64,000 nucleotides of DNA from Typha latifolia (taxonomy: Eukaryota > Streptophyta > Magnoliopsida > Poales > Typhaceae), in assembly GCA_019914945.1 (NCBI GenBank), contig CM034111.1, positions 6,696,001 through 6,760,000 on the forward strand, given 5' to 3'. The notes beneath the pieces were generated by a model. The model ran no database searches and was not told the origin of the DNA. It worked only from the letters and a program-made list of their open reading frames with translations. How positions within the stretch are numbered: the first letter of the stretch is position 1; every line of letters starts with the position of its first letter. Both the position numbers and the translations under genes were made by a program. Below are positions 8,134 to 51,183 of the stretch, in pieces.

Positions 8134-8141
8134 CTTTTCCC

Positions 8142-11825: not shown

Positions 11826-11833
11826 CTTTTCCC

Positions 11834-13235: not shown

Positions 13236-13263
13236 AGGGCAAGGTGTGGGAAGTGTGGTGGGC

Positions 13264-19671: not shown

Positions 19672-19673
19672 AA

Positions 19674-23634: not shown

Positions 23635-24070
23635 TGATATGACTAGGATTGGACCTAGTTATCACAGGCTGAGTTTCTTTTATTTCTTTCTAAAATAAAT
23701 TTTTTCTAAAGGTCGTATTCGAACGCAAGGAATCGCGTTCGAACGCCCTCGTTCGAATGCTTGCATATGTTTGCAAATACAGCGAACGTGTTTAGCGCAT
23801 TCGAATGCCCCTAATCGAATGCCTGTATACGTTTGCAAAGATAGTGAATGCATTTAGCGCGTTCGAATGCACTTGACAGCATTCGAACGCGATCGGTAAA
23901 TCTGCACTCTTTCTAAAGTTTCTTTTGATTGTTTTGCTTATTAGGTTAGCCTCTAAATATGTGGAAGGCAACCTTTTGATCATTATTAAATGAATTGAGT
24001 TTTTTCCCCCCAAATCTTCTCCTCCCCTTCTCTCTTGTTCTCTCCCACTACGGCTATGCCATCTCTAATC
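23635..24070 (+). repeat. E 5' LTR, left part
   Basis: It matches 42172-42600 of the 3' LTR (TGACTAGGATTGGACCTAG... to ...GCCATCTCTAATC), including a GCGTTCGAACGC-like cluster at 23712-23890. It is interrupted after TAATC by C1 and continues at 27434. Confidence 0.8.
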
Positions 24071-24735
24071 TGATACGATTCGAGCTTCACTAATGTCGTC
24101 TCGAACATGAAAACACTCTAGGAGTGTTTTTGTTTCTTGTTTTAGTATTTAATTCTTAAAAAATAAGTTTTCTTTATGTCGCGTTCGAATGCGGGTGGAG
24201 TGCGTTCGAACGTGCTTGTGAACACCTGCATAAGGTTCGCACATCTAGAGAGTGCGAAAATGTGCTTTTGAACGCCGTGTTTGAACGCACCTGCGAACGC
24301 CTGCATCGCATTCACACATACAGAGAACGCAAAATGTGTGTTCGAATGCGATCGGGCGAGCTCGAACGCAGTCAGCAAAAATCGACTATTTTAGGGTTAT
24401 TAATTGTCATTTTTTAATTATTTGGTTAGCCTCTAAAAGTGTACATGGCAACCATGGAACCATTATTGATAAATTGAGGTTTTGTCCTGCCTCCTTCGTC
24501 TCACTCACGGGTGCCACCCCATTAACGCCGGTCCACCACTATCCACCATCATCTAGGATCTCATGCCTCCATCCACGGATCAAAAGACGGACTACCAAAT
24601 GTACATCCACTAATCGGACGATATCTTGAGATCCCGACATCCGATTCACCTGAAACTTGATTTGTTGGAAAGATCTTTTTTGGGGCTACAACATATCAAA
24701 ACTCACTTCGATCTGACAGCAGCATATTTTGGTAA
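24071..24735 (+). repeat. C1 5' LTR, 3' end deleted
   Basis: Colinear with 26550-27350 of the 3' LTR, with an internal gap after 'cgtctcactcacgggtgcc', and with cluster repeats at 24180-24370. It breaks off near 24735 where protease-encoding DNA starts. Confidence 0.85.
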
Positions 24736-25260
24736 CCCGTGGAGGACATGAGAGCCGAAATCTCCCTCCACTCATATTCAGGGACAGTTGCGGTGAATCT
24801 TGATCGACACCAGGTCCACTCACAACTTCATTGACAAGAGGCTTCTTAGGAAGATTGGGCTTGAGTCGAAACCCACAAAAGGGTTCGATGTGATAATTGG
24901 AGATGGCACCATATTGCGGGCAGATCTTATTTGTGGAGGTGTAGAATTGAAAGTGCAAGGCCAAACTTTCACATTGGATCTTTATCTATTGGCCTTGCGA
25001 GGTGCCAACATTGTCTTGGAGACCCAATGGCATCAAAGCTTGGGGCCGGTAACATTTGATTTTTCAAACCTCACACTTACATTTCGGAGGAATGGTCGAA
25101 GAGTGCTGCTGGATGGAAACCAACCACGGCAAGGGCCAACGTTGCAACCACTTTTGGAACTTTCTTGTGCAGGGGACTGAGCTCTACTATTGCAAATGGA
25201 TGTTGCTGAACTAGAACATCCACCACCAAGGGAAATAGTCGCTGACATGCAAGAGCTGCT
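24736..25260 (+). pseudogene. C1 retropepsin, active-site mutated
   Basis: The ORF at 24800-25180 begins IDTRSTHNFIDKRLLRKIG, where the family has DSGST or DTGST. The catalytic D-T/S-G triad reads DTR, so the glycine is lost. The later LDLYLLALRGANIVLETQWH and GPVTFDFSNLTLTF strings are typical of plant gypsy proteases. In a live element it would cut the Gag-Pol polyprotein. It stops at 25180 before reverse transcriptase. Confidence 0.85.
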
Positions 25261-25815
25261 ATAGGAATTCAGGGATCTCTTCCAGGAACCCCGAGGACTG
25301 CCGCTGACCCGTCAGCACGACCATCACATCCAGATCATTCCATGGGCTGAACCAGCAAATGTTTGGCCCTATCAGTACCCGCCTGTCCAGAAGGAAGAGA
25401 TCAGCAAATTGGTGGAAGAGATCAGTAGAAGTGCCTACTCATCGCCGGTGCTGCTAGTTCGTAAGAAAGACGAGAGTTAGCGATTTTGCGTCGACTATCG
25501 AGCCTTGAATGCGATCACTGTCAAAGATCGGTGATCGAGGAGTTACTGGATAAACTTACAGGGTCGACCTACTTCAGTAAACTTGACTTAAAAGCGGGGT
25601 ACCATCAAATCTGCGTTGACCCGGAAGATGTGCACAAAATGACATTTTGAACTCACGATGGCCACTATGATTTTCGAGTCATGCCGTTTGGGCTCACCAA
25701 TGCACCGGCTAAAATTCAAGATGGGCAAATGCCTTTGGGGAGAGCCACGAGTGGAGTACTTAGGACATATAATCTCAGCAAGAGGAGTGGAGGCCGATCC
25801 AAACAAGATCAAGAA
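25261..25815 (+). pseudogene. C1 reverse transcriptase, deleted through the catalytic box
   Basis: Traceable strings: YQYPPVQKEEISKLVEEI, SPVLLVRKKDES followed by a stop, FCVDYRALNAITVKDR, then a small gap, LLDKLTGSTYFSKLDLKAGY (first catalytic aspartate region), a stop at about 25648, and HDGHYDFRVMPFGLTNAPA. Immediately after that the sequence jumps to [16 protein letters not shown], so the FxDD catalytic box and surrounding segment are missing. Confidence 0.85.
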
Positions 25816-26522
25816 TATGGCCCACTAATCAGCGGGAATTAAGGGGATTCCTTGGGTTGACGGGGTACTACCAGCGATTCGTTGCCAACTACGGCAAGAT
25901 TGCTGCCCCGCTGACCTCCTTACTCAGAAAAGGATGGTTTCAATGGACGGGCAAGGCGACGGAGGCCTTCGAAGCATTGAAGACAGGCATGTCTACCGCA
26001 CCGGTTCTAGCACTACCGAATTTCAGCAAGCCCTTTGTGGTGGAATGCGATGCTTCGAGTGAGGGAATTGGAGCTGCTTTAATGTAAGAGGGCAGGCCCA
26101 TGACATATATGACCAAGGCATTGTCAAACCGGTTGCAACAGTTATCAACCTATGAGCGCGAAATGCTAGCAATTCTACACGTTATCACCAAATGGCGACC
26201 CTACTTGATTGGCCAATGGTTTACTATACGCACGGACCAGCGTAGCTTACCCTACTTCATGGAACAACGTGTGCACACCCCAGCACAGCAATGGTGGGTC
26301 ATGAAACTCCTTGGGTATGACTACGAACTAGTCTACAAAAAGGGGATCGAGAACCGAGTGGTCGATGCTCTTTCGCGCCAACCGGACACAAGTGAACTCG
26401 CCTCCTTTTCAGCACCAACCCTTCCTCTATTTTTAGATATGTGGGCAACCAATGCAGAGGATCAAATCATGGAGGAGCTTGAGTCAGAGTTCAAAGATCG
26501 CTTCCCTAATTTCAAACCTTGA
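25816..26522 (+). pseudogene. C1 RNase H joined to a chromodomain tail (no integrase)
   Basis: 25857-26087 holds the start of RNase H ([39 protein letters not shown]). A TAA at 26085 splits it from 26100-26522, which keeps LSTYEREMLAILHVI, FTIRTDQRSLPYF and KGIENRVVDALSRQPDTSELASF. Within 20 residues it then reaches MEELESEFKDRFPNFKP and stop, which is the normal end of the whole polyprotein. The complete integrase has been removed. Element F shares this join. Confidence 0.88.
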
Positions 26523-26549
26523 GGACAAGGTTGCAGAAGCGTGGTGGAT

Positions 26550-27433
26550 TGATACGATTCAGACTTCACCGATGTTGTCTCAAGCATGGATACACTCTAG
26601 GGGTGTCTTTGTTTCTTGTTTTAGTGTTTAATTCTTAAAAAAAATAGTTTTCTGTATGTCACGTTCGAACGCGGGTGGAGTGCGTTCGAACACGCTTGTG
26701 AACGCCTACAACAGGTTCGCACATCTAGAGAGTGCGAAATGTGCGTTCGAACGCCGCATTCTAACGCGCCTGCAAATGTCTGCATCGCGTTCGCACATAC
26801 AGAGAACGCAAAATATGCGTTTGAACGCGATCAGGCGCATTTGAACGTGGTCGACAAAAATCTACTATTTTAGGATTAATAATTGTCATTTTTGAATTGT
26901 TTGGTTAGCCTCTAAAAGTGTGGATGGCAACTATGGAACTATTATTGATAAATTGAGTTTTTTCCCTACCTCCTTTGTCTTCTTCTCTCTCGTTCTCTCA
27001 TTCCCCAATGACGTCGCTTCTAACCTCCCTCGACTGGCCAATCACCCTAGTCCCTTAGGGGCAGCCCTCTCATCCCTCCTTCTTCCAATCTATCAATCAC
27101 TTGCCCTAATCCTTCCATCACCCATAACCCTTCCACCACCACTTACTCACCGGTGCCACCTCATTAATGCCGGTCCACCACCATCCACCATCATCTAGGA
27201 TCTCGTGCCTCCATCCACGGATCCTAAGACAGATACCCCATGTTCGTCCACTAATCTGACGATATCTCGAGATCCCGACATTCGATTCGCATGAAACTTG
27301 ATTTATTGAAAATCTCTCATTGATCCGACGGCGGTATCTTTCAGAATCTATTTCTAAAGTTTTGTATCAGATCCTGTCCACATCTGAAAATCGGAATATA
27401 TCAAGCCTGGGTCAAAAAGGGGAGTTCGTATCA
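26550..27433 (+). repeat. C1 3' LTR
   Basis: 884 bp, TGATACGATTC to GTTCGTATCA, followed by the TAATC target duplication. The cluster of GCGTTCGAACGC-type repeats is at 26660-26850. The last 250 bp contain the module found antisense in A2. Confidence 0.9.
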
Positions 27434-27550
27434 TAATCTCCTCGTCGCATCTGGCCTATCCCCCTAGACCCATAGGAAAGGTCCCCTTATTCCTTTTCTT
27501 CTCCTCTCTTTTATACCCAAATATTTTCCATTGACATCAAGATCACATTA
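27434..27550 (+). repeat. E 5' LTR, right part
   Basis: It starts with the TAATC duplicate and continues TCCTCGTCGCATCTGGCC ... GACATCAAGATCACA, matching 42595-42704. It ends just before the PBS. Confidence 0.85.
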
Positions 27551-27551
27551 G

Positions 27552-27564
27552 TGGTATTAGAGCC
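27552..27564 (+). promoter_or_regulatory. E primer-binding site
   Basis: TGGTATTAGAGCC, a one-base variant of the usual initiator tRNA-Met site, directly downstream of the LTR and 17 bp before the gag ATG. Confidence 0.8.
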
Positions 27565-27580
27565 ATCGGTTCTTGGACTC

Positions 27581-28937
27581 ATGACAACCACAAGAGCAAT
27601 GGCCAATCGACGCACTGCAATGGAGGTACCCATGGAGACCGAACCTAATACGTCCTCGACGCTAGTGGGTAGAGAGGATGCTAGCATGAGCGCGACCTCG
27701 ACTTGTTCAGTGCTTAATATGGATCTAACCTTAGTCTCCCTCTTCCAACAAATGATGGATCTACAACGAATGTAGTAGGAGGAGATGAGAGGCATCAGAG
27801 AAGAGTTGCGGAACCTCGCAACCACCATATGCATGCCAGAAATTCCAGCGCCAACAAATCCAACTACGATGGTGTTGCCTCAACCAGGAGCTAGGGAAAC
27901 CCTTGCTCAAAATAGACCATTGGTGCCACCACCCAACGACCCTAGAGGACTTTACCAAGGCCCCTATGATCTACCAAGGGGTGCGGAGCAGGCACGTCCA
28001 AATCTAAATCCCAACCGAGCCGAGATGGATGCGGGTTGGCCGAATCGAGATGATCCTGGTTGGCACCATAAAAGAGATGATATGAGGCACCGAGAAAATG
28101 ATGTACCGATTCTACATCCTCCTATCATTGGGCCTGAATTAGTGTATGATGCGGGGTGCGAATCCTATATACGGAAGAACGACAAGGCTCGAGTTCCCTA
28201 AGTTCCAAGGAGGTAATCCTTTGGATTGGATTTTTCATGCTGAACGATTTTTTATATATCAAGGAACAACGGAAGATGCCAAGGTGTTTTTGGCAAGCTT
28301 CCATTTGGAAGGCGCAGCATTACATTGGTATCAATCCGTGAGCACACACCAAGTGTTCAATGGATGGTTGATATTCGTAAATGCCCTATCTAGGCACTTT
28401 GGAACTGCAGGCTTTGAGGACTACAATGCCACTCTATCAAAGCTTGTCCAAAAGACGTCGGTTGATGCCTACTAGGAGGAGTTTTAACGAATCAGTAGTT
28501 AGTGCCAACCAACCACAATGGCCACAAGAAATCCTAATCAGCACTTCTATTTTTGGGTTACGCGAGGGGGTCTGGTCTAATGTACTTTCTCTACAACCCA
28601 GGACCTTAAGCGAGGCCTTTGAAGATGCAACTAGGATGGACCAGAAGCATCAAGCCTTGAGGAATGCTAACAAGCTCGGCTGGAACAACAGGTTTATGCC
28701 ACGGGCAATCGAGGCGATTGGCGCAGCGAGTACGACTGCTAGAGCACCAGCGGCCATAGCAGGGCCACAGGCCATTCCAAGGCTTGTTCCAGGAGTACAA
28801 GGAGGTGGAGCACCCTTTGGGGTCCGTACTCTTACACCTGCACACGTGGAAGAGCGACGAGCCAATGGGCTATGTTTCAAATGTAACGAGAGGTTCACTC
28901 CGGGCCATCGTTGCACCAAGGCGACGGGCAACGTTAT
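27581..28937 (+). pseudogene. E gag, 5' part, interrupted by D1
   Basis: ATG at 27581 gives MTTTRAMANRRTAMEVPM, the usual start of this gypsy group. Two in-frame stops at 27773-27778 are followed by the same frame to 28201. The conserved gag core is in a second frame, 28146-28475 (FPKFQGGNPLDWIFHAERFF, ASFHLEGAALHWYQ, LSRHFGTAGFEDY). After further shifts, the frame at 28381-28937 carries an Ala/Pro-rich linker and the zinc knuckle CFKCNERFTPGHRC. Gag packages RNA into cytoplasmic particles. D1 inserted 13 codons after the start of the knuckle; gag resumes at 41536. Confidence 0.85.
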
Positions 28938-29821
28938 TGTTAGGTTTTTAATTGTTGGCAATTGTGTACAAAATATTCTAAGTTTATTTTTACATGTATA
29001 AGAGCTTTATACAAGTCTAGAATATCTCTGGTTTGAAGAATTGCAAGATTATTAGAGAAAAGCTGTTGAGTTCACACCGCGTTCACAAACGTGTTCGAAC
29101 GCATACCGTTCACAAACCCGTTCGAACGCAGGTACTACGTTCACACAGGACCAGAGCTGCATTCACAAACGCAACCTGAAGAATTCAAGTTGTCGCATTC
29201 GAACGCACTCGGGCCCATTCGAACGCACCTAAGATCAAGTTGTGCCGTTCGAAAGACTTGGGCCGCGTTCGAACGCACCAACGAAGTTTGAAAATCTTGG
29301 ACTTTCATGAGTACAAATAAGACTTGGATTGGGCTCTATCTTGGAGATGATATATAAGGATTGTGATGCCCTATCTCTAGGGTGGTTGAAGAAGTACTAT
29401 TGAAGGAGACTTCTTGTGGCTACATCGGTTCTTCAACTAACAAGATTCCACTCATCTACAAAAGTTAATCTTTCATCTTAAGGGCTATCTAGACGAAAGA
29501 TCAATCTCGAGGGTTACTGAGGTTGGACTTCACTCACGAGAAGTAGTGAATCGTGGGTTCTAGCGAGCAAGATTGAGAGGAACAAAGTTGTTTGGATCGA
29601 CGAATTGTTTTGTGAGTCAGTCTTGTAACTATTACTATTCTTGTGATTGGTTTTGATCCGAGTTTGGATCTGTGGTTTTTTCCTGTTTGGGTTTTTCCAC
29701 GTTAAAATCTTGGCATTCATCTCTTCTTTCGTCCTTAATATTTCTATGAACTTTTACTTAAGCGAACGAGTGATATCATTGCCTAATATTTAGATACATA
29801 CTTGTGTCTACGGGTTTTTCA
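28938..29821 (+). repeat. D1 5' LTR
   Basis: 884 bp, TGTTAGGTTTTTAATTG to GGGTTTTTCA. It contains the cluster of GCGTTCGAACGC-related repeats at 29071-29280. AT and the PBS TGGTATCAGAGCGGG (29824) follow. Confidence 0.92.
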
Positions 29822-29823
29822 AT

Positions 29824-29838
29824 TGGTATCAGAGCGGG
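29824..29838 (+). promoter_or_regulatory. D1 primer-binding site
   Basis: TGGTATCAGAGCGGG, two bases after the LTR end; initiator tRNA-Met type as in most plant copia elements. Confidence 0.88.
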
Positions 29839-29870
29839 TTCTCTCACCTTTTGAGAGAGATCAGATAGGC

Positions 29871-31571
29871 ATGGCTTTTCAAAGAGATGGACCATCATCT
29901 ATTAGACCTCCTATCCTAGATGGATCAAATTATGGATATTGGAAAGCTAGGATGAGAGCTTACTTGAAGTCTATAGATGAACAAGTGTGGTTTGCCGTTG
30001 TGAACGGTTGGAGTCCACCAATGTACATGGTGGATGATAAACTTGTTGATAAACCGATAGAGTCATGGGATAGGTCAGATTATGAAAAAGTTGGATGGAA
30101 TAGCAAGGCAATAAATGCAATTTTTAGTTGGGTTTCCTCAGAAGAATTTAGAAGAATTTGTACTTGTGAGATAGCAAAAAAAGCTTGGATGATCTTAGAA
30201 ACTACTCACGAAGGAACTATGGCTATAAAACTTTTTAAACATCAGAGGTTGACTATTAGTTTTGAAACTCTACGTATGGAGGAGAATGAGACATTTGATG
30301 AGTGATATAGCCAACTCCAATTTCAACCTAGGAGAGAAAATTCCTGAAAACAGAATTGCCCGTAAGATCCTTAGGTCTCTTCCAGAAAAGTTTCAAGCGA
30401 AAGTCACAGCTATTGAGAAAAGTAAGGACATCGATTCTATGAAATTTGAACAATTGGTAGGAAATCTATAAACATTTGAGTCTAGTCTTTCAAAATCGAG
30501 GAAGTCCAAAGGGATTGCCCTATCCATAGTTGAACAAAATATAGAGGAGTCTGATGATGAAGGTGATTTAGATGTTGAGATGTTGGCCATGTTCGTCAAA
30601 AAGTTTAATAAACTCTTTTGGAAGCCAAACAAATTGAATGCTGAAAAACTTGAGAAAAGCAAAGCCTTTGTGAAAAAGAAGAATACTGCGAGTTCGAATA
30701 CATGTGTGAGCAACAATAGTGTCAAATAGAAAAATAAGAATTCTAAGAATAAAGTTCGATGTTTTGAATGTTCTAGTTTTGGACACATAGCACAAGAATG
30801 CCCTAATCGCTTTAAGAAGAAGGGTAAAGCTATGAAAGTTATTTGGGATGTCTCAGATGAATTTGATAATGATTTTGGAAAAGGCGAAGAAAACTTTGTA
30901 GCTTTTGCCTCTTCTCTACTTAATATTAATTTTGTTGTTGATACTGATAGTACAAATGATCAGGATATGTTACCAGCTGAGGAAGATGAATCTGAAATTC
31001 AAAAGGCATATAATGACCTATACCTGGAGTCGTTTAAACTCAAAAAAGCAATCTTAGACTACTTCAACGACTCAAGGTAATCGAACTAGAAAGAATTCAA
31101 TTTGAGGAGACGTACAAATTGGAACTTGAACAAGTCAAAGACCTTTCTGAACAACTTGACAATACAAAAAATAAAATGAAGGCTGATGAAATTGAACTAA
31201 AGTGACTAAATAAGGAAGTGACATTTCTAAAAGGGAAGAACAAACTTGACAAGATTCTAAAGGCTCAGATCTCTGGAAAAGACAAGTATGGTGTTGGATA
31301 CACTAGTAATTCAAATAATAATAAAACTGTCTTCGTTTCTGCAGGTATACAAAAGGTAGAATATCTGAAGTCATCAACCGCATTTACAAAGCAATCCTGG
31401 ATGAATGCTTCTAAACTGAAGTTGAATCTACAAACTGGTGAATCTTCAACAGCACCAAAGGTAAACTTTAGTCACACTCCTCGACAAAAGGTGAGTAGAA
31501 AAGGGTTTGTTCCGACATGCTATCATTGCGGCATTCTAGGGCATATTCGACCTCATTGCAAATTTTTGTAA
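29871..31571 (+). pseudogene. D1 gag with two zinc knuckles (broken)
   Basis: The UBN2-type copia gag begins MAFQRDGPSSIRPPILDGSN, with YGYWKARMRAYLKS and AWMILETTHEGTMAIKLF. A deletion after ENETFDE (about 30303; D2 keeps EFYAKLSD here) shifts the frame into 30262-30471, and a stop at 30469 follows. Then come an acidic/basic linker, another stop at about 30727, and the first CCHC knuckle CFECSSFGHIAQEC (about 30760). 30832-31080 is acidic. After a short frame change, 31218-31570 has a second knuckle, CYHCGILGHIRPHC. The protein would coat RNA in particles. D2 carries a second, less broken copy. Confidence 0.87.
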
Positions 31572-31598
31572 AAACCTAGAAGTGCTTTCATTTATGGG

Positions 31599-34232: not shown

Positions 34233-35179
34233 TGAAAAACCCCTAGATACAAATATGTATCTAAATACTAGGTAATGATATCATTCATTCGCTTAAGTAA
34301 AAGTCCATAGAAATATTAAGAACAAAAGCAGAGATGAACGCCAAGATTTTAATGTGGAAAAACTCAAACGGAAAAAAACCACAGATACAAACTCGGATCA
34401 AAACCAATCACTATAATAGTACCAGTTACAAGACTCACTCACAAAACAACTCGTCGATCCAAACGACTTTGTTCCTCTTAGTCTTGCTCGCTAGAACCCA
34501 CGATTCATTGCTTCTTGTGATTGAAGTCCAACCTCAGTAACCCTCGAGATTGATCTTTCATCTAGATAGCCCTTAAGACGAAAGATTAACTTTTAATGAT
34601 AAGTGGAACCTTTGTTCCTCTTAGTCTTGCTCGCTAGAACCCATGATTCATTGCTTCTTGTGATTGAAGTCCAACCTCAGTAACCCTCGAGATTGATCTT
34701 TCGTCTAGATAGCCCTTAAGACGAAAGATTAACTTTTAATGATGAGTGGAACCTTGTTAGTTGAAGAATCGATGTAGCCTCGAGAAGTCTCCTTCAATAA
34801 TGCTTCTTCAACCACCCTAGAGATAGGGCATCACAATCCTTATATATGATCTCCAAGATAGAGTCAAATCCAAGTCTTATCCGTACTCACGAAAGTCCAA
34901 ATTTTATCAAACTTCGTTGGTGCGTTAGAACGCAGCCCAGATGCGTTCGAACGGCATGACCTGATCTCAAGTGCGTTCGAACGGGCTCGAGTGGGTTCGA
35001 ACGCGACAATTTGAATTCTTCAGGTTGCGTTCGAACGCGTTTGTGAACGCAGCTCTCGGTCTGTGTGAACGTAGTACCCACGTTCGAACGCATTTGTGAA
35101 CGTAGCTCTCGGTATGTGTGAATGCAAGTACCCGCATTCGAACACATTTGTGAACGCAGCTCTCGGTCTGTGTGAACGC
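34233..35179 (-). repeat. Inverted copia LTR in D1, left part
   Basis: It starts TGAAAAACCCCTAGATAC, the reverse complement of the D-family LTR end, and runs to 35179, where D2 is inserted. It contains an internal duplication of about 120 bp ('cctttgttcctcttagtcttgctcg', 34490-34600 against 34610-34730). ORFs at 34887-35203 on the minus strand are LTR repeats, not genes. Confidence 0.88.
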
Positions 35180-36156
35180 TGTTAGGTTTTTATATGTTGG
35201 CAATTGTGTACAAAATATTTTAAGTGTATTTTTTCATGTATATGAGCTTTACACAAGTCTAGAGTATCACTGGTGTGAAGAATTTCAAGATCATTGGAGA
35301 AAAGCCGTCGCGTTCTCAGCCGCGTTCACAAGCGCGTTCGAACGCGGGCACTGCGTTCACACAGACAGAGAGCCGCATTCACAAGCGCGTTCGAACGCGG
35401 GCACTGCGTTCACACAGACAGAGAGCCGCGTTCACAAACGCGTTCGAACGCGGGTACTGCGTTCACACAGACCGAGAGCAGCGTTCACAAACGCGTTCGA
35501 ACGCAACCTGAAGAATTCAAGCTGTCGCGTTCGAACGCACTTGGGCCCGTTCGAACGCAAGTGAGATTAAGTTAGGCCGTTCGAACGCACTCGGGCCGCG
35601 TTCGAACGCACCTATGAAGTTTGCAATTTATTGGATTTTCGTGAGTACGAATATTACTTAGATTTGGCAATATCTTGGAGATCATATATAAGGATAGTGT
35701 TGCCCTAACTCAAAGGTAGTTGAAGAAGATTATTCAAGGAGACTTTTTGGAGGCTACATCGGTTCTTCAACAAAACAAGGCCCTTCGCATCTACAAATCT
35801 TAATCTTTCGTCTTAAGGGCTATCTAGACGAAAGATCAATCTCGAGGGTTACTGAGATTGGACTTCAATCACAAGAAGCAGTGAATCGTGGGTTCTAGCG
35901 ATCAAGACTGAGAGGAACAAAGTCGTTTAGATCGACGGGTTGTTTTGTGAGTCAGTCTTGTAACTGCTACTATCATAGTGATTGGTTTTGATCCGAGTTT
36001 GGATCCGTGGTTTTTTATCGTTTGGGTTTTCCACGTTAAAATCTTGGCGTTCATCTCTACTTTCGTTCTTAATATTTCTACGGACTTTTACTTAAGCGAA
36101 CGAGTGATATCATTGCCTAGTATTTAGATACATACTTGTGTCTAGGGGTTTTTTCA
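35180..36156 (+). repeat. D2 5' LTR
   Basis: 977 bp, TGTTAGG to TTTTTTCA. Three direct 53-bp units start at 35351, 35404 and 35457, each with GCGTTCGAACGC and a GCGTTCACACAGAC block. The apparent ORFs at 35172-35575 translate these repeats in three frames and are not genes. Confidence 0.93.
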
Positions 36157-36158
36157 AT

Positions 36159-36173
36159 TGGTATCAGAGCAGG
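36159..36173 (+). promoter_or_regulatory. D2 primer-binding site
   Basis: TGGTATCAGAGCAGG, two bases after the LTR end. Confidence 0.88.
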
Positions 36174-36204
36174 TTCTCTCACCTTTGAGAGAGATCAGAT
36201 AGGC

Positions 36205-38058: not shown

Positions 38059-39742
38059 TTTTCTTTTTGTTTTGGTTTGCATGTTTCATTTTTATGAGTT
38101 TTTTTTTCGTTTCTATTTAGGTTTTATTTTACTCTGAAATTTTCTTTGCTTTTAGTTTCAGATTTGTCGAGAGTTTTTTGCTATAAAAAAAAAATTGATG
38201 CACTCCTAGATTCAATAATATACTCTTGACATAAAAATATGATTTTTCTCTTGATTATGAGTTATTATAGTCAATTTTGTCATCTTGTAGTATATTGTTT
38301 CAATTTTAATTTTGTCACTCCCTCGACTTCAATAATTATAAATGTTTAATGCACTCATAACGTATGTGTATTATTGTGTGAGCATGATATCATGAATATT
38401 TTTTTAAATAGCTCACTATTAACTTTGATTTGCACAGTTTGACCTCATGCTTAGTCATAAAAAATATGTTCATAAAAGATCAATGAAAAGGGCTACAATG
38501 AGTTAGTGTGAAAGCCGTCTTGTTTCGAGTCCAATTTGACTCAAGACATTATATGCAAATTCAAAAAAAAATATGTGAATTTCTTCTTGCACTTTGTTTG
38601 ATTTGTATTACAAGAAAAGGGCTACCTACTCATGTGTGAAAGTCATCATTGCACCTATATTGGTTTATGTATAAAATATAATACAGAAATTTCCTGTTAT
38701 GTTATGGAGAATAAGTCGAAAAGTGCAAAATTTCAATACTAAGTCGGTTTGACTACTGTGTTGCATCATTGTTTATATAGAAAAGTTTGTTTAAAAAGAT
38801 TGGTTCATGTTATCTATGCTCATCTTGCATATGCATATCGTTATGATCAATCAAGATTAATTTAATTTTGTGTGATGGATTAGAATTGATTATAATATGC
38901 TCTTGATGATTTGATTGATCTGTGTATGACTTATTTCATTTGATTGTCATATTCTATGTCTTGAATCTATTTTGAATTTTCTAGTAGTGCATCTCCAAAA
39001 AGATTTTTAATTTGTTTTAGTTTAAATTTAAAAAAAATATCCAAATCCTCAAGATCTTCATCTTTTTCATCAAAATTTTCACTTCAAACCCTTTTAAAGT
39101 CTTTTGGCCGAAACTTCAAGATTTTCTTCACTTTTTGCGAGGTATGATCATTCATCAATTTTCTTATTTTTTATTCAATTAAGTCTCTTGATCTTGATTG
39201 ATTTCTGCGGTTTCGAGTTTTGATCATGTTAAAGTTAATATCTTGATGTTTCTTGTGCGATTGAATGTGATATCTTAGCATTTTCAAGTGAAAGATGGGT
39301 TTCAATTAGGGCCTTCATGGTTTTTTCATCGTCAGTTCCCTCCGAGTTCCTAGTCTTTGGCATTTGTGTCAAAAAGGGGGAGAGTGTCTAGTGTGTCGTG
39401 TGTGGTGCGAGTTTAAAGTTTTAGAGTTTACGTGTGTAGGGGGAGCATGGCAATAGGGGGAGTTTATTAGAGTCTTTCTGTCTTTCTAATCTTGCTTATA
39501 ACTTTGCCCGGAGAAATTGTGAACTTTGTCTGTTTAAGTACTTTTGAACTTATGCTCCATTGATAACTTGTGGTTGGATTATTTATTCATTTCAAGTTAT
39601 TTTCACTTGATCTTGGTTTGGTATATGTTTCCTTGCAGGGATTGATGTGCAAAATATTCTAGACTTGTTGATTGCTCAGTTTGAAATCTTTGTAATATCT
39701 TGTAACCTAGGTGTTTTGTCACAAATTGCCAAAGGGGGAGAT
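38059..39742 (+). other. D2 3' non-coding region with multiple polypurine tracts
   Basis: 1.7 kb of T-rich DNA. Purine tracts occur at 39371-39384 (aaaaagggggagag), 39438-39445, 39454-39462 and immediately before the LTR at 39731-39740 (aaagggggag). Repeated polypurine tracts upstream of the 3' LTR are a reported feature of Sireviruses. Confidence 0.8.
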
Positions 39743-40666
39743 TGTTAGGTTTTTATATGTTGGCAATTGTGTACAAAATATTTTAAGTGTATTTTTTCAT
39801 GTATATGAGCTTTACACAAGTCTAGAATATCACTGGTGTGAAGAATTTCAAGATCATTGGAGAAAAGCCGTCGCGTTCTCAGCCGCGTTCACAAGCGCGT
39901 TCGAACGCGGGCACTGCGTTCACACAGACAGAGAGCCGCGTTCACAAACGCGTTCGAACGCGGGTACTGCGTTCACATAGACCGAGAGCAGCGTTCACAA
40001 ACACGTTCGAACGCAACCTGAAGAATTCAAGCTGTCGCGTTCGAACGCACTTGGGCCCGTTCGAACGCAAGTGAGATTAAGTTAGGCCGTTCGAACGCAC
40101 TCGGGCCGCGTTCGAACGCACCTATGAAGTTTGCAATTTATTGGATTTTCGTGAGTACGAATATTACTTGGATTTGGCAATATCTTGGAGATCATATATA
40201 AGGATAGTGTTGCCCTAACTCAAAGGTAGTTGAAGAAGATTATTCAAGGAGACTTTTTGGAGGCTACATCGGTTCTTCAACAAAACAAGGCCATTCGCAT
40301 CTACAAATCTTAATCTTTCGTCTTAAGGGCTATCTAGACGAAAGATCAATCTCGAGGGTTACTGAGATTGGACTTCAATCACAAGAAGCAGTGAATCGTG
40401 GGTTCTAGCGATCAAGACTAAGAGGAACAAAGTCGTTTGGATCGACGGGTTGTTTTGTGAGTCAGTCTTGTAACTGCTACTATCATAGTGATTGGTTTTG
40501 ATCTGAGTTTGGATCCGTGGTTTTTTACCGTTTGGGTTTTCCACGTTAAAATCTTGGCGTTCATCTCTACTTTCGTTCTTAATATTTCTACGGACTTTTA
40601 CTTAAGCGAACGAGTGATATCATTGCCTAGTATTTAGATACATACTTGTGTCTAGGGGTTTTTTCA
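39743..40666 (+). repeat. D2 3' LTR
   Basis: 924 bp, TGTTAGG to TTTTTTCA, with two 53-bp units (39914, 39967) against three in the 5' LTR. Confidence 0.93.
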
Positions 40667-40800
40667 AACGCAGCTCTCGGTCTGTGTGAACGCAAGTACC
40701 CGCGTTTGAACGCGTTTGTGAACGCACCGCATTCGAACGCGTCTGTGAACGCGGTGTGAACTCAATAGCTTTTCTCCAATAATTTTGCAATTCTTCACAC
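40667..40800 (-). repeat. Inverted copia LTR in D1, right part
   Basis: It continues the inverted LTR after the AACGC duplicate and ends ...GCAATTCTTCACAC at 40800, at a point corresponding to about 110 bp inside the LTR start. The junction with the forward LTR shares TTCACAC. Confidence 0.85.
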
Positions 40801-41530
40801 AGACCGAGAGCTGCGTTCACAAACTCGTTCGAATGCAGGTACTGCGTTCACACAGACCGAGAGCTGTGTTCACAAACGCGTTCGAACGCAACTTGAAGAA
40901 TTCAAATCATGTCGTTCACTCGGGCCCATTCGAATGCACCTGAGATCAAGTCATGTCGTTCCAACGCACCCGGGTCGCGTTCGAACGCACCAACGAAGTT
41001 TGAAAATCTTGGACTTTCGTGAGTACGGATAAGACTTGGATTTGGCTCTATCTTGGAGATCATATATAAGGATTGTGATGCCCTATCTCTAGGGTAGTTA
41101 AAGAAGCATTATTGGAGACTTCTTGTGGCTACATCGGTTCTTCAACTAACAAAATTCCACTCATCTACAAAAGTTAATCTTTCGTCTTAAGGGCTATCTA
41201 GACGAAAGATCAATCTCGAGGGTTATTGAGGTTGGACTTCAATCACGAGAAGCAGTGAATCATAGGTTCTAGTGAGCAAGACTGAGAGAAACAAAGTCAT
41301 TTGGATCGACGGGTTGTTTTGTAAGTCAGTCTTGTAACTGCTACTATTCTAGTGATTAGTTTTGATTCTAGTTTGGATCCGTGGTTTTTTCCCGTTTGGG
41401 TTTTTCCACGTTAAAATCTTATCGTTCATCTCTGCTTTCGTTCTTAATATTTCTACGGACTTTTACTTAAGCGAACGAGTGATATCATTGTCTAATATTT
41501 AGATACATACTTGTGTCTAGGTATTTTTCA
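40801..41530 (+). repeat. D1 3' LTR, left end missing
   Basis: Forward orientation from AGACCGAGAGCTGCG, through cluster repeats (40809-40990), to GGTATTTTTCA at 41530, then the GTTAT target duplicate. The first about 170 bp of the LTR are absent. Confidence 0.88.
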
Positions 41531-41535
41531 GTTAT

Positions 41536-42120: not shown

Positions 42121-42171
42121 TCCTCTAGATTGCACCGACAGAACCTGAGACCCTTCCTAGCTAAGACCCTA

Positions 42172-42707
42172 AGACTAGGATTGGACTTAGTTATCTCAGG
42201 TTGAGTTTCTTTTGTTTCTTTCTGAAATAAAATTTTTTGAAGGTCGCATTCGAACGCAAGGAATCGCATTCGAACACCCTTGTTTGAACTCCTGCATACG
42301 TTTGCAAATACAATGGACGTGTTTAGGACGTTTGAACGCCCCCGATTGAATGCCTGCATACGTTCGCAAAAATAGTGAATGCATTTAGCACGTTTGAACG
42401 CACTCGACCGCATTCAAACGCGATCGGTGAATTTGCACTCTTCCTAGGGCTTTCTTTTGATCGTTTTGCTTGTTAGGTTAGCCTCTAAATATGTGGAAGG
42501 CAACTTTATGATCATTATTGAACGAATTGAGTTCTTTTCCCAAAATCTTCTCCTCCCATTCTATCTCGTTATCTCCACCATGGCTATGCCATCTCTAATC
42601 TCCTCATCTGGCCTATCCCCCTAGACCCATAGGAAAGGCCCCCTTCTTCCTCTTCTTCTCCTCTCCTTTATACCCCAATATTTTCCATTGACATCAAGAT
42701 CACATCA
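42172..42707 (+). repeat. E 3' LTR (first few bases missing)
   Basis: GACTAGGATTGGACTTAG... matches 23641 onward, holds a weak GCGTTCGAACGC cluster (42245-42420), continues through the joint CTAATCTCCTC that C1 breaks in the 5' copy, and ends GATCACATCA. This uninterrupted copy proves the reconstruction of the split 5' LTR. Confidence 0.82.
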
Positions 42708-44516: not shown

Positions 44517-45436
44517 TATACAATGCATATTTATAGATATGTATTATATATTTGTAAGTACTTGATATGATAGGCTGATGGTAAGAGAGAGAGAGAATTT
44601 AAAAAAAAATAGAGATGAATGAGAATAGAGGATTTTTAAAATAATATAATATGCGGATTTAGAGAAACTTTGATACGTGCCTATGCTTTGGTAGGTGTTA
44701 GAAAGGAAAGGTAGTAGGAATAGAATATGGTATGCCAGGCTAAATTTGTCGACTTTTCCACTGCAAAATCCAACGGGGCTCCAATATGCAACAAGTGCCC
44801 CATATATAAGGACAGTACTTCTACAACCAGAAGCCAACACTATCAACTATATTCATGTGCGCAAAACGGGTAGATTACTATTTTTCGATACATCTTAATG
44901 TTCGAATTTGTTTTTATATCTGTATAGTCTTTGTGGTTATATAGATTGAAGAATAATATTTTAATATTTGCATATCATTCAGTTCGAAATATTGTAAAAG
45001 TAATGATATAAGGTTTTTCTGGGAAAGTACATTTTATCTCGTATGGTTAGTCATAAATTCACTTCATCCATTATAATTTTATTTGTTACTTTAGTTCCTT
45101 TAGGGCTATATTCAAACTAAAAATATTATTCTTTTTTATCAATTGACCAATCTACAGGTCAAATTTAAAAATACTTAATAGAGATAAAAAAAAGTAAATA
45201 ATTGGATAAATTTTCCTAACATGTTAAAAATAATACCGGTCAGATTTCAAATAAAAATATTTATTAAATATTTATGATGCGATCCGAGTCAGGTCAGATC
45301 ACATCATAGGGACATTGAGCTTAATGGGTCGAGTCTAGTTTTCTTATCTTTTTATTTGGTTTAGTTAGAGTCTAAATAGGTTAGAGTTTAGTAAATTAGC
45401 TAACTTCAGTTTAGTTAATTTCCACTCAGTTTTGGA
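44517..45436. other. Unannotated DNA
   Basis: A short GA run at 44583-44594 and AT-rich sequence. The two overlapping ORFs at 44544-44898 have no recognisable domain. Nothing else seen. Confidence 0.5.
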
Positions 45437-46451
45437 AAAATATTTAGAAGATACTCGTTAGATATCTGAATAAGCTAGCCACTTCTTGGGTTGCTCCCCG
45501 GCAAAATATCTCAAATATTGCTTAATGTGGCGATTGACGACCTCAGATTGCCTGTCAGTTTGAGGATGATATGTGGAGCTCATCTTGAATTCAGTTCCTT
45601 GTGCTTGAAGTATTCTTGCCAAAAGTGACTTTTGAAGACCGGGTGGGTCATGATCTGAAACAATTGATCTTAGCATTATGCAATCGGGCCACATCCTTCA
45701 CAAAAAATTTCAGCAGCTTTCTTGGGAGTGTAGAAGTATGATAGGGCTGAAAAGTGTGCATTCTTCAACAATCAGTCGACGACAACCATGATCATGGAGT
45801 GTCCTATAACATGAGGTAGTCCTTCAATGAAATCCATCGCCACACCCTCCTAGATATAATCCTGAATGAGCGATGGTTGCAACAGCCTCGCCTATTTAGT
45901 CAGTTCGCTTTGGTGCGTTGACACACTTCACAAGCTCAGACGTAAGTTTGCACCTTCCTTTTGACCCCAAATCAAATGCAATTTTAGGTTAGCCTCTTGT
46001 AGGTCCTGAATGTCCATTTCATTTCCCACCATAGGTGTGTCATGGAAGTGACGGATCAAGGAGACCCACAACTCAAGCTTGGCCGATATGCGCACCCGGC
46101 CCCGATCTAGGACTAGCCCGTCCTTCAAATCTAGTCTAGGAAAACTTGCTAGTTCCTTCTCCATCTTGCTCATGAGCTCTGCCATCTCTAGGTCCTCTAG
46201 ATAGGATGTCGAAATCTAAGCTAATTCGATCTAATCGAGTTGTCGAAATAATGCATCGACGACTTGATTTTCAGTTCCTTTCTTACACACCAACTCATAG
46301 TTATACCTAGCAATTTTGTCACTCATCTTTGTTGTGTCGGTGTGTGTATCCATTGACTAAGGAAGTACGGTAGGCTCCTCTGGTCTGTGCAGACAATGAA
46401 TTGTCGCCCGATCAAATACGACCACCAATTTCATGACGGCGTGGAAGATAG
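45437..46451 (-). pseudogene. Gypsy G RNase H end and integrase (broken)
   Basis: Minus-strand order: AVMKLVV... with damaged frames, TTKMSDKIARYNYELV and ENQVVDAL (RNase H end). The integrase N-terminal part is at 46185-45928 (MAELMSKMEKELASF, LIRHFHDTPMVGNEMD). The core starts MDFIEGLPHV and ends in 45694-45458 (SIVSDHDPP, QAQGTEFKMSSTYHPQTD, QSEVVNRHIKQYLRYF). Stops and shifts occur throughout. Confidence 0.85.
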
Positions 46452-46970
46452 TGTAACACCCACAAACCCTAAACACGTGCATGGCACGATCCCATATGGC
46501 ACGTGCATGGCACCTGACTATTTGGTGAGTTACTAACAATCAAATAAATCTGTATCAAGATCATAATTTTATCCACAACATCTAAAATAAGAATAACGCA
46601 AGTCTAACTATCAACGGCACATAGATAACCCTACTTGGGCCCCATAGAGGCCACAACACATCATCAAAAGCTTTTCACCACAACATATACACAACGGTGG
46701 TATATACATAATTATACAAGTACTAAGTCACCAGCTAGAATATAAGACAAGGATAAAGACACACTTTGGAGGATGTCTACTAATACATCAAATAAGATAA
46801 CTCATCTAGCGCATAACACTAACCACACTCTACTCTTCACCCACTGGCAAGACCTCTAAGATAGTATCCTGCTCCACTCGTTCACCTAGATTTTTGGAAA
46901 AGAGAAAACAAAGAGGCTCATGAGCTAAAAGCTCAGTGAATAGACCTTACCCCGAATTAGTGAAGCCAAA

Positions 46971-48023
46971 TGATACGATTCGGACTTCACCGACATCGTC
47001 TCGAGCATGGATTCACTTTAGGAGTATTTTTATTTCATGTTTTAGTGTTTACTTTCCATTAAAATAAGTTTTATGTAAGTCACGTTCGAACGCAGGTGGA
47101 GTGAGTTCGAACGCGGTTTGTGAACAGGGTAGTGAACGTGGTGAAGAGAATGTACTATGCGTTCGAACGCGGTGCGTTCGAACGCACTATGAACGCCTGC
47201 ATCGCGTTCGCACATACCGACAGGCGCGTTCGATCACGCGTTCGAACGCCTGCATCGCGTTCGCAAATCCAGAAGAGCTAATTCGGTGCGTTCGAACGCG
47301 GCTGGGCGAGTTCGAACGCGGTCGACGAAAATTGTGTTTTAGGGTTAATGTGAGTTGTTGGTTAGCCTATAAAAGGATGTGTAGGGCAACCAAAATTATT
47401 ATTGATTATTGAGATTGAGTTTTGCCTTGCCTCCTTCGTCTTCTTCGCTCCCGTTCTCTCAATCCCCGGCGATGCCGCTTCTAACCTCCCTCGTCCGGCT
47501 AATCACCCTAGTCTGGCTAATCACCCTAGTCCCTTAGGGGTGGCCCTCTTTCCCCCTTCGTCCAATCTATCCCACACTTGCCCTAATCCTTCCATCAACC
47601 ATAACCCTCCCACCATCACTTTTCACCGGTGCCAGCACATTAACGCTGGTCCTCCACCAACCATCATTACATAGGATCTCGTGCCTCCATCCACGAATCC
47701 AAAACAGAGCATCCTGATGTTTGTCCACTAATCGGACGGTATCTCGAGATCCACAACTCTGATTCGCCTGAAACTTGATTTGTTGGAAAGCTCTTTTCTA
47801 GGGCTACAACATATCAATATTTCACATCGATCCAACGGCGGCATAGTTCGGGATCTTATTTCAAAGTTCCGTGCCAGATCTAGTACAGATCAAGAATTGG
47901 AAGAGATCGATCATTTACCAAAAAGGCGTGATCGTATCAAGCTGGTATCAGAGCTCCATAGCCAAAGGTGTGATCGTATCAAGCTAGTATCAGAGCTCCA
48001 TAGCCAGAGGTGTGATCGTATCA
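46971..48023 (+). repeat. F 5' LTR
   Basis: TGATACGATTCGG to the third TCGTATCA at 48023. Cluster repeats at 47087-47325 and the antisense-shared module at 47672-47920. It is longer than the 3' LTR because the 3' copy lacks about 107 bp after 'cttcttcgctcccg' (47455-47560 here). Confidence 0.88.
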
Positions 48024-48038
48024 AGCTGGTATCAGAGC
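47928..48038 (+). repeat. 42-bp LTR-end/PBS tandem units (5' copy)
   Basis: PBS-like sites start at 47943, 47985 (TAGTATCAGAG, one change) and 48027, exactly 42 bp apart, each preceded by GATCGTATCA plus AGC. The third is the functional-position PBS in front of gag. The peptide repeat LVSELHSQRCDRIK that appears in translation is a by-product. Confidence 0.9.
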
Positions 48039-48063
48039 CACCGTTCCTCCAACAAGCGCTTCC

Positions 48064-48765
48064 AATGACGACAACCAGATCCATGGCTGCACGGCGAGAT
48101 GATGAAGAAGAGATTATCCCAATAGATGAGGGAGAAATGGTTGCGGGGACTTCCACCCGTGGAACCGCCCAATCTAATCGGAATACAGAAGAACCTAGTG
48201 TTCAAGCCGTGTTGGGGTCTCTTTCCGGATGATGGCCATCAATAATCAAATGATGATGGAGATGTTTGTGGGAATTACGGGCGTGGCCGAAACCTTCTTC
48301 AACAAGCGGGGGCAATCACAAGGCAGCATGGGGAACCCTCGCAACATACCCAACATCCTCCACGGCCTCCCGTTCATCACAAAAGTTGGGGAGAGTTCGG
48401 CTATCGTGCAAGATCAAGCTTCTACACCTCGACCCATGGTTAGCTGCAACAAACGGCTGTCGGCTACAATGGGATCCTCAACCATTGTAGCAGCCCTCGG
48501 AACCTCCACATCTTCCCATGCATCGGAGACCTCGTCGACAAACTGTGAAGGGCTGGCTGCACCATTCCCGATCCCTGCAGAAACGGCGAAGAGTCTAGCT
48601 TCAAGGCAGCAGTTTCCTTCGGCAAGCTCAACGGTTGGGAATGTTCTTTTGACGTCAGAACGGAGTTCTTCGACGAGTCGACAACCGTGCGAACCACTGT
48701 TGAATGGAGGAAGACCACACGTGGCCGCTGGATATTCCTCATCAGTGGTGAGGGAGATGATCTAG
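48064..48765 (+). pseudogene. F gag, N-terminal part (degenerate)
   Basis: ATG at 48064 opens MTTTRSMAARRDDEEE, the group-typical gag start, then a low-complexity acidic stretch to the stop at 48230. An overlapping frame (48229-48765) has a Ser/Thr/Pro-rich sequence starting MMAINNQMMMEMFVGITG, which fits the gag leader. The capsid core, zinc knuckle, protease and reverse transcriptase are not found. Confidence 0.65.
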
Positions 48766-49860
48766 AACCGCAAGTTCCAAAGACTTGGGCCGCCTAACAC
48801 CACCTTCATTTGCAACCACAAAGCGGAGTCGGCAACTATGAAGAAATCATGTATGGCCTCTAGTGACCTTCCACCATTCTCCTCGGTCAATCGACAGTCG
48901 ATCGCGATAGTGCCATCACCGGCGATGACGTTGCGGCTCCCCCGCCGAGCTACAACTCGAAGGAGAAGGCCGCAATCTTCCAACCACGGCAGCACGAGCC
49001 TCTAACAGACTCGTAAAGACCTTGTGGGCTAATGATTTTCTCACCCAAATGATCGAAAGCTCCCTGCCATGGCTACGACAAAATGAAAAAGGAGATGAAG
49101 ATTTTGTTTTTGTCAACCTCGGCCTTCCACAAAGAGTCAAACCATCGCCACCCCAAGAGGGGCCTCACCAGCAACTATTGTAGTATTCCGGATGACCAAA
49201 GGCTCCTTGCCATGGCTGCAACGGGGACAGAGAAGGACCTGAAGATTTTATTTTTGGGCCAACTTCGGCCTTCCATCGCCGCCGACTACTCGCCACACCG
49301 TCGGGAACCCTACTTAAGCAACTACTAGAGGTGGTCACTACTCGGCCAAGGCTGCCACGTGCTAAGGCAACTCCTATGGCAATGGCTAATGGAGATGGAA
49401 CTAAGAGAGAAAGATTAGGGATTTCAAATTTTTTGAAGACTCTAAGTGGTTAGAATTTCAAGAAGGCTACATTGTTGGGCTTGACCGGGTGGAATTGCTA
49501 GACATTAGTTGGGTTGGACCTAAGAGCCAAAGGGGTCAAGTCAAGTGGGAGTCATCTCTGGACTTCGGGACTCGGTTAAGTCAAATAAGGGACATGATCG
49601 AAACCCTCTACTTGACTTAAGACGAGTTTGCTTATACTAGGATACATTTGACTCGGATCCTAATCCATGGAGTGGGCAGAATGATTATGAGCACAACCAA
49701 CAATCAGTTTGGCTAGCTAAACCTAACTTGAGTCACTGGGAGAACCTAATCTGGATCCACCAACTGCATCTAACTCGACCTCCCGAGCGCAATCGGATGC
49801 ACTAGATTTCTATTGCTCAACTGACATTGAGTCAATTGGTTCGACCACCCGAGACCAAGT
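48766..49860. other. F internal DNA of unknown origin
   Basis: No gypsy domain is visible. It is more GC-rich in its first half. Two imperfect direct copies of about 145 bp share the strings 'gctcc(c/t)tgccatggct', 'gaagattttgtttttg/attttatttttggg' and 'cggccttcc' (49045-49180 and 49190-49330). The second half carries repeated 'gactcggttaagtc'-like words. Possible captured host DNA, unproven. Confidence 0.45.
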
Positions 49861-50210
49861 GGACTCAATGTAGATGGACCCGAATTTCACCTTGGACTAG
49901 TTGGAGTACGAGTATCCAAGCTCGACTAAGGATGAACCCCTTTGAGGCGGTTATGGTCGCACTACCTCTATCTTGTGTGCCTACGAAAGACTCGCGGCGA
50001 CGGATCGGACCGAGCTTGACTTGGAACTTGCTGATCGAGAATCGAGCGGGCGATGCCCTTCGCGCCAACCCGACACAAGTGAGCTTGCCTCTTTCTCAGC
50101 ACCAACATTTCCTATATCTTCGAGATATGTGGGGAACCAATGCGAAAGATCATACCATGGAGGAGCTTGACTCAGAGTTCAAAGATCGCTTCCCAAATTT
50201 CAAACCTTGA
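49861..50210 (+). pseudogene. F scrambled integrase and RNase H/chromodomain tail
   Basis: About 49900-50040 gives integrase C-terminal strings in shifting frames (LRMNPFEAV; CAYERLAATDRTELDLELADRE). From 50041 the sequence matches C1 (NR-GDAL-RxP, SELASFSAPTFP, TMEELDSEFKDRFPNFKP, stop at 50208). In the normal order RNase H precedes integrase; here an integrase piece precedes the RNase H end, so at least two rearrangements occurred. Confidence 0.75.
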
Positions 50211-50237
50211 GGACAAGGTTGCGGAAGCGTGGTGGAT

Positions 50238-51183
50238 TGATACGATTCGGACTTCATCGACATCGTCTCGAGCATGGATTCACTTTAGGAGTATTTTTAT
50301 TTCATGTTTTAGTGTTTACTTTCCATTAAAATAAGTTTTCTGTAAGTCGCGTTCGAACGCGGGTGGAGTGAGTTCGAACACGGTTTGTGAACAGGGTTGT
50401 GAACGTGGTGAAGAGAATGTACTGTGCGTTCGAACGCGGTGCGTTCGAACGCACTATGAACGCCTGCATCGCGTTCGCACATACCGATAGGCGCGTTCGA
50501 TCACGCGTTCGAACGCCTGCATCACGTTCGCAAATCCAGAAGAGCTAATTTGGTGCGTTTGAACGCGGTCGGGCGAGTTCGAACGCGGTCGGCGAAAATT
50601 GTGTTTTAGGGTTAATGTGAGTTGTTGGTTAGCCTATAAAAGGATGTGTAGGGCAACCAAAATTATTATTGATTATTGAGATTGAGTTTTGCCTTGCCTC
50701 CTTCGTCTTCTTCGCTCCCGTCCAATCTATCCCACACTTGCCCTAATCCTTCCATCAACCATAACCCTCCCACCATCACTTTTCACTGGTGCCACCACAT
50801 TAACGCTGGTCCTCCACCAACCATCATTACCTAGGATCTCGTGCCTCCATCCACGAATCCAAAACAGAGCATCCTGATGTTCGTCCACTAATCGGACGGT
50901 ATCTCGAGATCCGCAACTCCAATTCGCTTGAAACTTGATTTGTTAGAAAGCTCTTTTCTAGGGCTACAACATATTAATATTTCACATCGATCCAACGGCG
51001 GCATAGTTCGGGATCTTATTTCAAAGTTCCGTGCCAGATCTAGTCCAGATCAAGAATTGGAAGAGATCGATCATTTACCAAAAAGGCGTGATCATATCAA
51101 GCTGGTATCAGAGCTCCATAGCCAGAGGTGTGATCGTATCAAGCTGGTATCAGAGCTCCATAGCCAGAGGTGTGATCGTATCA
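50238..51183 (+). repeat. F 3' LTR
   Basis: TGATACGATTCGG to ATCGTATCA, then CCAAA. Cluster repeats at 50345-50585. It ends with the same 42-bp units (PBS-like sites at 51103 and 51145), which here have no priming role and are directly flanked by the target duplicate. Confidence 0.9.

What the first reader, a model, noticed from the sequence alone, without database searches (positions are those of the whole stretch)
23712..50585. A palindromic U3 module shared by copia and gypsy LTRs
Copies and near-copies of GCGTTCGAACGC crowd the U3 half of nearly every LTR here apart from the A family: gypsy B (13436-13620, 18895-19085), C (24180-24370, 26660-26850), E (23712-23890), F (47087-47325, 50345-50585), and copia D (29071-29280, 35309-35610, 39872-40120). 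The spacers are also alike: gypsy GCGTTCGCACATACAGAGAA against copia GCGTTCACACAGACAGAGAG, 17 of 20 identical. Copia and gypsy LTRs are not homologous, so the module was probably exchanged or captured, and may be an enhancer or silencing target. Palindromic repeats have been reported for Sirevirus LTRs; their presence in gypsy LTRs is what surprises. I do not know of a described case.
Basis: partly seen in the sequence, partly recalled or inferred. Interest (0 to 1): 0.87.

Follow-up and report, generated by a model that had tools for sequence, protein, structure and literature searches.

The report
Palindrome array shared by transposon superfamilies
In this plant genome one short mirror-image DNA word, repeated in clusters next to promoters, recurs about 15,000 times and is shared by unrelated kinds of jumping gene, which suggests that the cluster itself was passed between them or that they all came to use the same host factor.

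Summary
Confirmed, and wider than reported. The window has 60 copies of GCGTTCGAACGC with ≤1 mismatch, 27 of them exact, against 0.03 expected. The 214-Mb genome has 14,944 exact copies; a same-composition palindrome has 2, the reversed word 0. The copies form arrays upstream of TATA-like boxes in Sirevirus (copia) and chromovirus-type (gypsy) LTRs; the A-type LTRs lack them. With half-sites fixed and spacers shuffled, copia and gypsy arrays still share a spacer box (CACAKACAGAGA) and, in the best pairs, gapped alignments of about 120-190 columns. The average effect is modest, the reverse-complement control also exceeds shuffles in some pairs, and one gypsy array (L033) shows no likeness to copia. 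Outside the window a third carrier exists: a hAT-like DNA-transposon family whose array lies 0.84-0.98 kb from a transposase domain and scores highest against copia arrays. Best reading: a Sirevirus-type palindromic enhancer array that spread between superfamilies, probably bound by a host protein. Transfer, direction and function are inferred; convergence is not excluded. Precedents: Sirevirus repeated motifs, and a maize palindrome shared by copia elements and Helitrons.

The parts
12796..13233 (+). gypsy integrase SH3 + chromodomain fragment just upstream of the B LTR
   Evidence: PF24626, PF00385
13432..13616 (+). gypsy B1 palindrome array (5 sites with at most 2 mismatches)
14230..14379 (+). 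second, partial B-type array
18892..19069 (+). gypsy B2 array
23715..23890 (+). E1 array (gypsy by LTR likeness)
24181..24369 (+). gypsy C1 array (highest z with a copia array, L038)
24797..26519 (+). gypsy protease and RNase-H fragments between the C LTRs
   Evidence: PF08284, PF17919, PF17917
26661..26828 (+). gypsy C2 array
29091..29276 (+). copia D1 array
29787..30302 (+). copia gag fragment
   Evidence: PF14223
32088..32909 (+). copia reverse transcriptase fragment
   Evidence: PF07727; relatives in plants
34922..35145 (-). copia D5 array in a minus-strand LTR
35334..35609 (+). copia D2 array (53-bp units)
39376..39745 (+). [quoted passage not shown]
39897..40119 (+). copia D3 array
40702..40988 (.). 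rearranged D-type arrays (minus part, then plus part D4)
42246..42421 (+). E2 array (gypsy by LTR likeness)
47082..47319 (+). F1 array (gypsy by LTR likeness)
50349..50586 (+). F2 array (gypsy by LTR likeness)

Best explanation
The feature is a palindromic enhancer array of the Sirevirus repeated-motif kind: GCGTTCGAACGC units with a spacer box, placed just upstream of the LTR TATA box. The array, not only the 12-mer, is shared by Sirevirus copia elements, chromovirus-type gypsy elements and a hAT-like DNA-transposon family. Most likely it arose once, perhaps in the Sirevirus line, was carried into the others by recombination or capture between nested elements, and was kept because a host DNA-binding protein that recognises the dyad raises transcription from the neighbouring promoter. 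Shown: counts, position, shared grammar, presence beside hAT transposase domains. Inferred: common origin, direction, binding, function.
For: Counts far above controls. In the 10 of 12 window LTRs where one of the TATA-like strings that I chose by eye was matched, the last site ends 48-84 nt upstream of it; CpG observed/expected is 1.57-2.01 in the arrays of these 12 LTRs and 0.38-1.08 in the rest of them. The spacer box scores at least 9 of 12 with 0 of 500 spacer shuffles in 23 of 28 arrays; of the 9 arrays from loci not chosen by the box, 7 do. TTCGAACGC, 7 bases, GCGTTC and a looser form of the box: 1,429 genome places, reversed control 0. Best cross-superfamily pairs: F1 x D2 43 against 29 for the reverse complement; C1 x L038 z 10.7 (reverse 5.8), F2 x L005 z 8.1 (reverse 1.5). 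hAT-like family: 13 of 29 places compared have a PF14372 match 843-982 bp away, always on the same side; the L039 array aligns to copia L043 at 60 against a null maximum of 41 and 13 reversed, and 13 of 26 arrays gave 0 of 300 shuffles. Palindrome columns stay more alike than spacers in 15 of 15 within-superfamily comparisons despite CpG decay.
Against: The average copia-gypsy signal is modest: 169 pairs, mean z 2.52 forward and 1.16 reversed; forward beats every shuffle in 24 pairs, but the reverse control does so in 10. Without the loci picked by the spacer, 117 pairs give 2.19 against 1.19, forward better in 72, with 0 of 200 shuffles in 10. L033 shows no likeness to copia arrays. E2, D1, L029, L033 and L042 miss the box criterion. 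The L039 array shows no signal against D1, D4 and L001 (82-96 of 300 shuffles as good). The 100 listed composite units fall into two spacer types with few intermediates, so exchange is not ongoing. L043 was picked by its match to the hAT stretch. No binding, expression or methylation data were at hand.
Confidence: 0.5

Rival explanations
1. Convergence: copia and gypsy elements each built up sites for the same host DNA-binding protein; the spacer box is part of its composite site, so the likeness reflects binding, not descent.
For: Two spacer types stay mostly separate among the 100 places listed; average spacer likeness is modest and absent for L033; palindromes are kept better than spacers.
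Against: Gapped alignments of about 120-190 columns that include linkers; a second spacer variant (CACATCTAGAG.AGTG) in gypsy C and copia L038, read from the alignment and rare in exact form (15 copies); the hAT-like array and copia L043 share linkers as well.
Confidence: 0.27
2. RNA hairpin or silencing target: the arrays matter as folded RNA that feeds small RNAs, as proposed for maize Sirevirus palindromes.
For: Both arrays tested fold far better than shuffles: D2 z -5.91, F1 z -4.17, 0 of 200 shuffles as stable in each. 89 of 166 substitutions in near-copies are CpG transitions, where one sixth is expected if all single changes were equal; this is the mark of methylation.
Against: Any dense palindrome array folds well. 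Position close to the TATA box and 20-21-bp pairing suit DNA binding. It does not explain why the hAT-like family carries the same spacers.
Confidence: 0.12
3. Neutral tandem-repeat growth: CpG-rich units spread by slippage and unequal exchange, with no function.
For: 53-55-bp tandem runs, up to 16 sites in one array.
Against: The same 12-mer in three superfamilies; palindromes conserved despite CpG decay; the reversed and rearranged control words are nearly absent.
Confidence: 0.1

Closest known systems
Sirevirus repeated motifs (RM boxes), Bousios et al. 2010, PMC2829016 (passages and sections 6, 8 and 9 seen)
   Same: Palindromic units, many copies, clustered in the upper half of the LTR upstream of the TATA box, CpG-rich; the copia D element has the Sirevirus AGGGGGAG-AT/TG junction with further GGGGGAG tracts upstream.
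   Different: Core here is TTCGAA, not CGG-CCG. The paper calls the motif Sirevirus-specific and absent from classic (copia) retrotransposons; here it is also in gypsy and hAT-like elements.
Maize palindrome CACCGGACNNNGTCCGGTG in copia elements and Helitrons, PMC10760457 (passages seen)
   Same: One palindrome found in two superfamilies of one genome.
   Different: Other sequence; no gypsy or hAT, no spacer grammar and no test of common origin in the passages seen.
[quoted passage not shown] 2016 (not seen; only as cited in passages of PMC5311732 and PMC10760457)
   Same: Palindrome-rich regulatory part of the LTR.
   Different: Concerns Sireviruses alone, as far as the citing passages say.

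Membership tests
Sirevirus (copia D) | copia-type gag and reverse transcriptase | tested here: met
   PF14223 (29787 and 36408 fragments), PF07727 (32088 fragment)
Sirevirus (copia D) | AGGGGGAG tract with AT/TG attachment site and extra tracts upstream of the 3' LTR | tested here: met
   AGGGGGAG-AT-TG at the D3 LTR; GGGGGAG also at 39376, 39439 and 39456 (the base before these three was not checked)
Sirevirus (copia D) | inverted repeat around the tract/LTR junction | tested here: met
   CACAAATTGCCAA ... TTGGCAATTGTG, read by eye
Sirevirus RM boxes | palindromic, at least 8 copies, upstream of TATA | tested here: met
   D2 has 8 sites with at most 2 mismatches and L005 16; D1 has 5, so not every LTR reaches 8
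Sirevirus RM boxes | CGG-CCG core | tested here: not met
   core is TTCGAA; Tnd-1 in the paper is also an exception
Ty3/gypsy chromovirus (B, C) | gypsy protease and RNase H; chromodomain | tested here: met
   C has protease and RNase H, B has the chromodomain; not shown in one and the same element
Ty3/gypsy (E, F) | gypsy pol inside the element | tested here: inconclusive
   three F fragments no Pfam match; E interior not tested; LTR likeness to B and C
hAT transposon (L039 family) | hAT transposase domain | tested here: met
   PF14372 at 20.7 bits in L039, below the cut-off of 27; 13 of 29 family places compared have a genome match to it within 1 kb, all marked over the cut-off (one, 26.9 bits, only together with its neighbours)
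hAT transposon (L039 family) | terminal inverted repeats and 8-bp target duplication | not tested
   ends not located

The most novel reading that the evidence does not exclude
A regulatory array behaves as a unit of inheritance of its own: an enhancer cassette that has crossed from one transposon superfamily to another, retrotransposon to DNA transposon included, within one genome, and has spread to some 15,000 exact sites.
Probability: 0.5. Interest if true: 0.85.

Novelty: new variant of a known kind. Interest (0 to 1): 0.72.

Why it matters
LTR regulatory regions are usually thought to evolve within a family (recalled). An array shared by copia, gypsy and hAT-like elements would make it testable whether transposons trade promoter parts, whether one host protein drives many of a genome's transposons at once, and whether the host could silence them through one sequence.

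Tried and rejected
Pol III B-box: GTTCGA fits the start of the recalled B-box (GTTCGANNC) but the last C is one base out of register; rejected from recall, no call made. Chance from CpG-rich LTRs: rejected. Misassignment to one superfamily: rejected for D and C, since both have their own domains. The loci L001-L015, L017, L029 and L033 were sorted into copia or gypsy LTRs by BLAST to the window or by eye; L015 and L033 rest mainly on eye and a TATAAATATGTGG-like box. Ongoing gene conversion between copia and gypsy: not favoured, because spacer types stay mostly apart. Binding-protein identity: the search for TTCGAA with DAP-seq gave 4 papers, none opened; the search for GTTCGAAC gave 302 papers, 20 listed, none opened. 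Viral contigs: 0 exact matches to GCGTTC plus the spacer box (records near this genome may be left out). Host species: not identified; named relatives of the copia RT come from many plants. Cross-superfamily global alignments failed for 4 of 6 pairs and are not used. The pattern GTTCRCACATCTAGAGNAGTG has only 15 copies.

Limits: the spacer-box consensus was made from window arrays, so the window tests are partly circular; L036-L039 were picked by the box and L043 by likeness to L039. Arrays are related to each other, so pair counts are not independent. Sites were picked by likeness to the 12-mer, which favours high identity in palindrome columns. Near-copies also hold inherited variants (24 of 166 substitutions are G1 to C). 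The hAT count took 29 places from the 52 rows and 15 of the 146 rows, chosen by eye. Of the hAT-like copies only L039 and L042 were read; 9 of the 13 with a domain align across the array region, three have most of it missing and one matches the flanks only.

Full report
The window has 27 exact copies of GCGTTCGAACGC, 60 with at most one mismatch and 88 with at most two; 0.03 are expected with at most one mismatch. The genome (214 Mb, 62 contigs, of which 18 lengths were shown: 15 of 9 Mb or more and 3 of about 0.1 Mb) has 14,944 exact copies and 37,692 with at most one mismatch, against 0 and 109 for the reversed word. A palindrome of the same letters and CpG number, GCGAACGTTCGC, occurs twice. 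No copy with at most two mismatches lies in window 1-13431, which holds the A-type repeats and, beyond them, a gypsy RNase-H fragment.

The carriers in the window are of two superfamilies. D is copia by gag and reverse transcriptase fragments and a Sirevirus by its AGGGGGAG-AT/TG junction, further GGGGGAG tracts and inverted repeat (features from PMC2829016). C is gypsy by protease and RNase-H fragments between its LTRs, and B has a chromodomain fragment just upstream of its LTR. E and F are gypsy by LTR likeness. No copia-gypsy LTR pair of 150 nt or more appeared in the self-comparison at E 1e-10. In the 10 of 12 LTRs where a TATA-like string was matched, the arrays end 48-84 nt before it.

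Likeness beyond the palindrome was tested with half-sites kept and spacers shuffled. In the window, 8 gypsy by 5 copia arrays gave mean z 2.79 forward and 1.32 for the reverse complement, forward better in 31 of 40. With all arrays, 169 pairs gave 2.52 against 1.16, forward better in 113 with 10 ties; forward beat all 200 shuffles in 24 pairs and the reverse control in 10. Without the loci picked by the spacer, 117 pairs gave 2.19 against 1.19, forward better in 72, and 10 beat all shuffles. The best pairs are strong: C1 x L038 z 10.7 (reverse 5.8), F2 x L005 z 8.1 (reverse 1.5). L033 shows nothing. The printed alignments run over about 120-190 gapped columns: F1 x D2, C1 x L038, L015 x L043 and C2 x L038.

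A box CACAKACAGAGA follows GCGTTC in most arrays examined: 23 of 28 reach at least 9 of 12 with 0 of 500 shuffles; E2, D1, L029, L033 and L042 do not. Of the 9 arrays from loci not chosen by the box, 7 do. TTCGAACGC, 7 bases, GCGTTC and a looser box occur at 1,429 places, control 0; the 100 listed fall into a copia type and a gypsy type with few intermediates. The exact 19-mer GCGTTCRCACAKACAGAGA occurs at 1,370 places, control 0. Palindromes 20-21 bp apart are frequent in both superfamilies: 17 of 59 adjacent spacings in gypsy, 18 of 83 in copia.

A third carrier lies outside the window. L039 (C1:8072500) has the box, two palindromes with one mismatch and no match to window LTRs at that place at E 1e-5. 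A hAT-like RNase-H domain lies beside it, below the curated cut-off in this copy. In the genome, 22 of the 52 rows found with L039:200-540 span at least 263 of its 341 bases, L039 itself included. Of 29 places compared, 13 have a PF14372 match 843-982 bp away, on the same side in each. Three copies with most of the array missing (C4, C6, C12) each keep one exact palindrome (L042 read). The L039 array scores highest with the copia array L043: 60 against 13 reversed and a null maximum of 41. L043 was found through L039, which biases that pair. Of 26 arrays, 13 gave 0 of 300 shuffles, among them L005, D2, B1 and L015 (z 5.3-5.8), which were not picked by likeness to L039; D1, D4 and L001 gave no signal.

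Decay and constraint. Of 166 substitutions in 117 near-copies, 89 are CpG transitions (one sixth expected if all changes were equal), as under methylation. Yet palindrome columns stay more alike than spacers in 15 of 15 within-superfamily comparisons, which argues for constraint, with the caution that sites were picked by likeness to the 12-mer. As RNA, the D2 and F1 arrays fold far better than shuffles, so the silencing rival stays open.

In print. [quoted passage not shown] PMC10760457 reports one maize palindrome in copia elements and Helitrons. Searches that could have shown a copia-gypsy or hAT case (13 of 13 papers listed, 15 of 397, 5 of 5, 12 of 19, 2 of 2) showed none in the titles and abstract starts listed. 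Three papers were opened (PMC2829016, PMC10760457, PMC5311732), in passages or sections. The library lacks most subscription papers.

Verdict: a real, strong and unusual pattern; common origin of the array across superfamilies is the best reading at about even odds, convergence the main rival, function untested.

Noticed in passing
35145-35180 and 40650-40685: The copia element with LTRs D2 and D3 appears to sit inside a half-site of an older D-type array, with a 5-bp target duplication AACGC, read by eye.
   Followed up: partly
47922-48038 and 51084-51183: The LTR end plus primer-binding site of F is tandemly repeated in 42-bp units; a similar 21/41-bp repeat of the primer-binding site lies at 19653-19765.
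   Followed up: no
8605-10979: hAT transposase fragments (BED finger, DUF659, dimerisation domain) with no palindrome copy of at most 2 mismatches in 1-13431, unlike the L039 family.
   Followed up: no
61083-62786: Fragments that look like an AP2-type transcription factor gene (recalled likeness; the three fragments tested gave no Pfam match), a possible host gene.
   Followed up: no
G000 C6:6453519, C12:4412790, C4:8411512 (L042): Copies of the hAT-like family in which the array has shrunk; each keeps one exact palindrome.
   Followed up: partly
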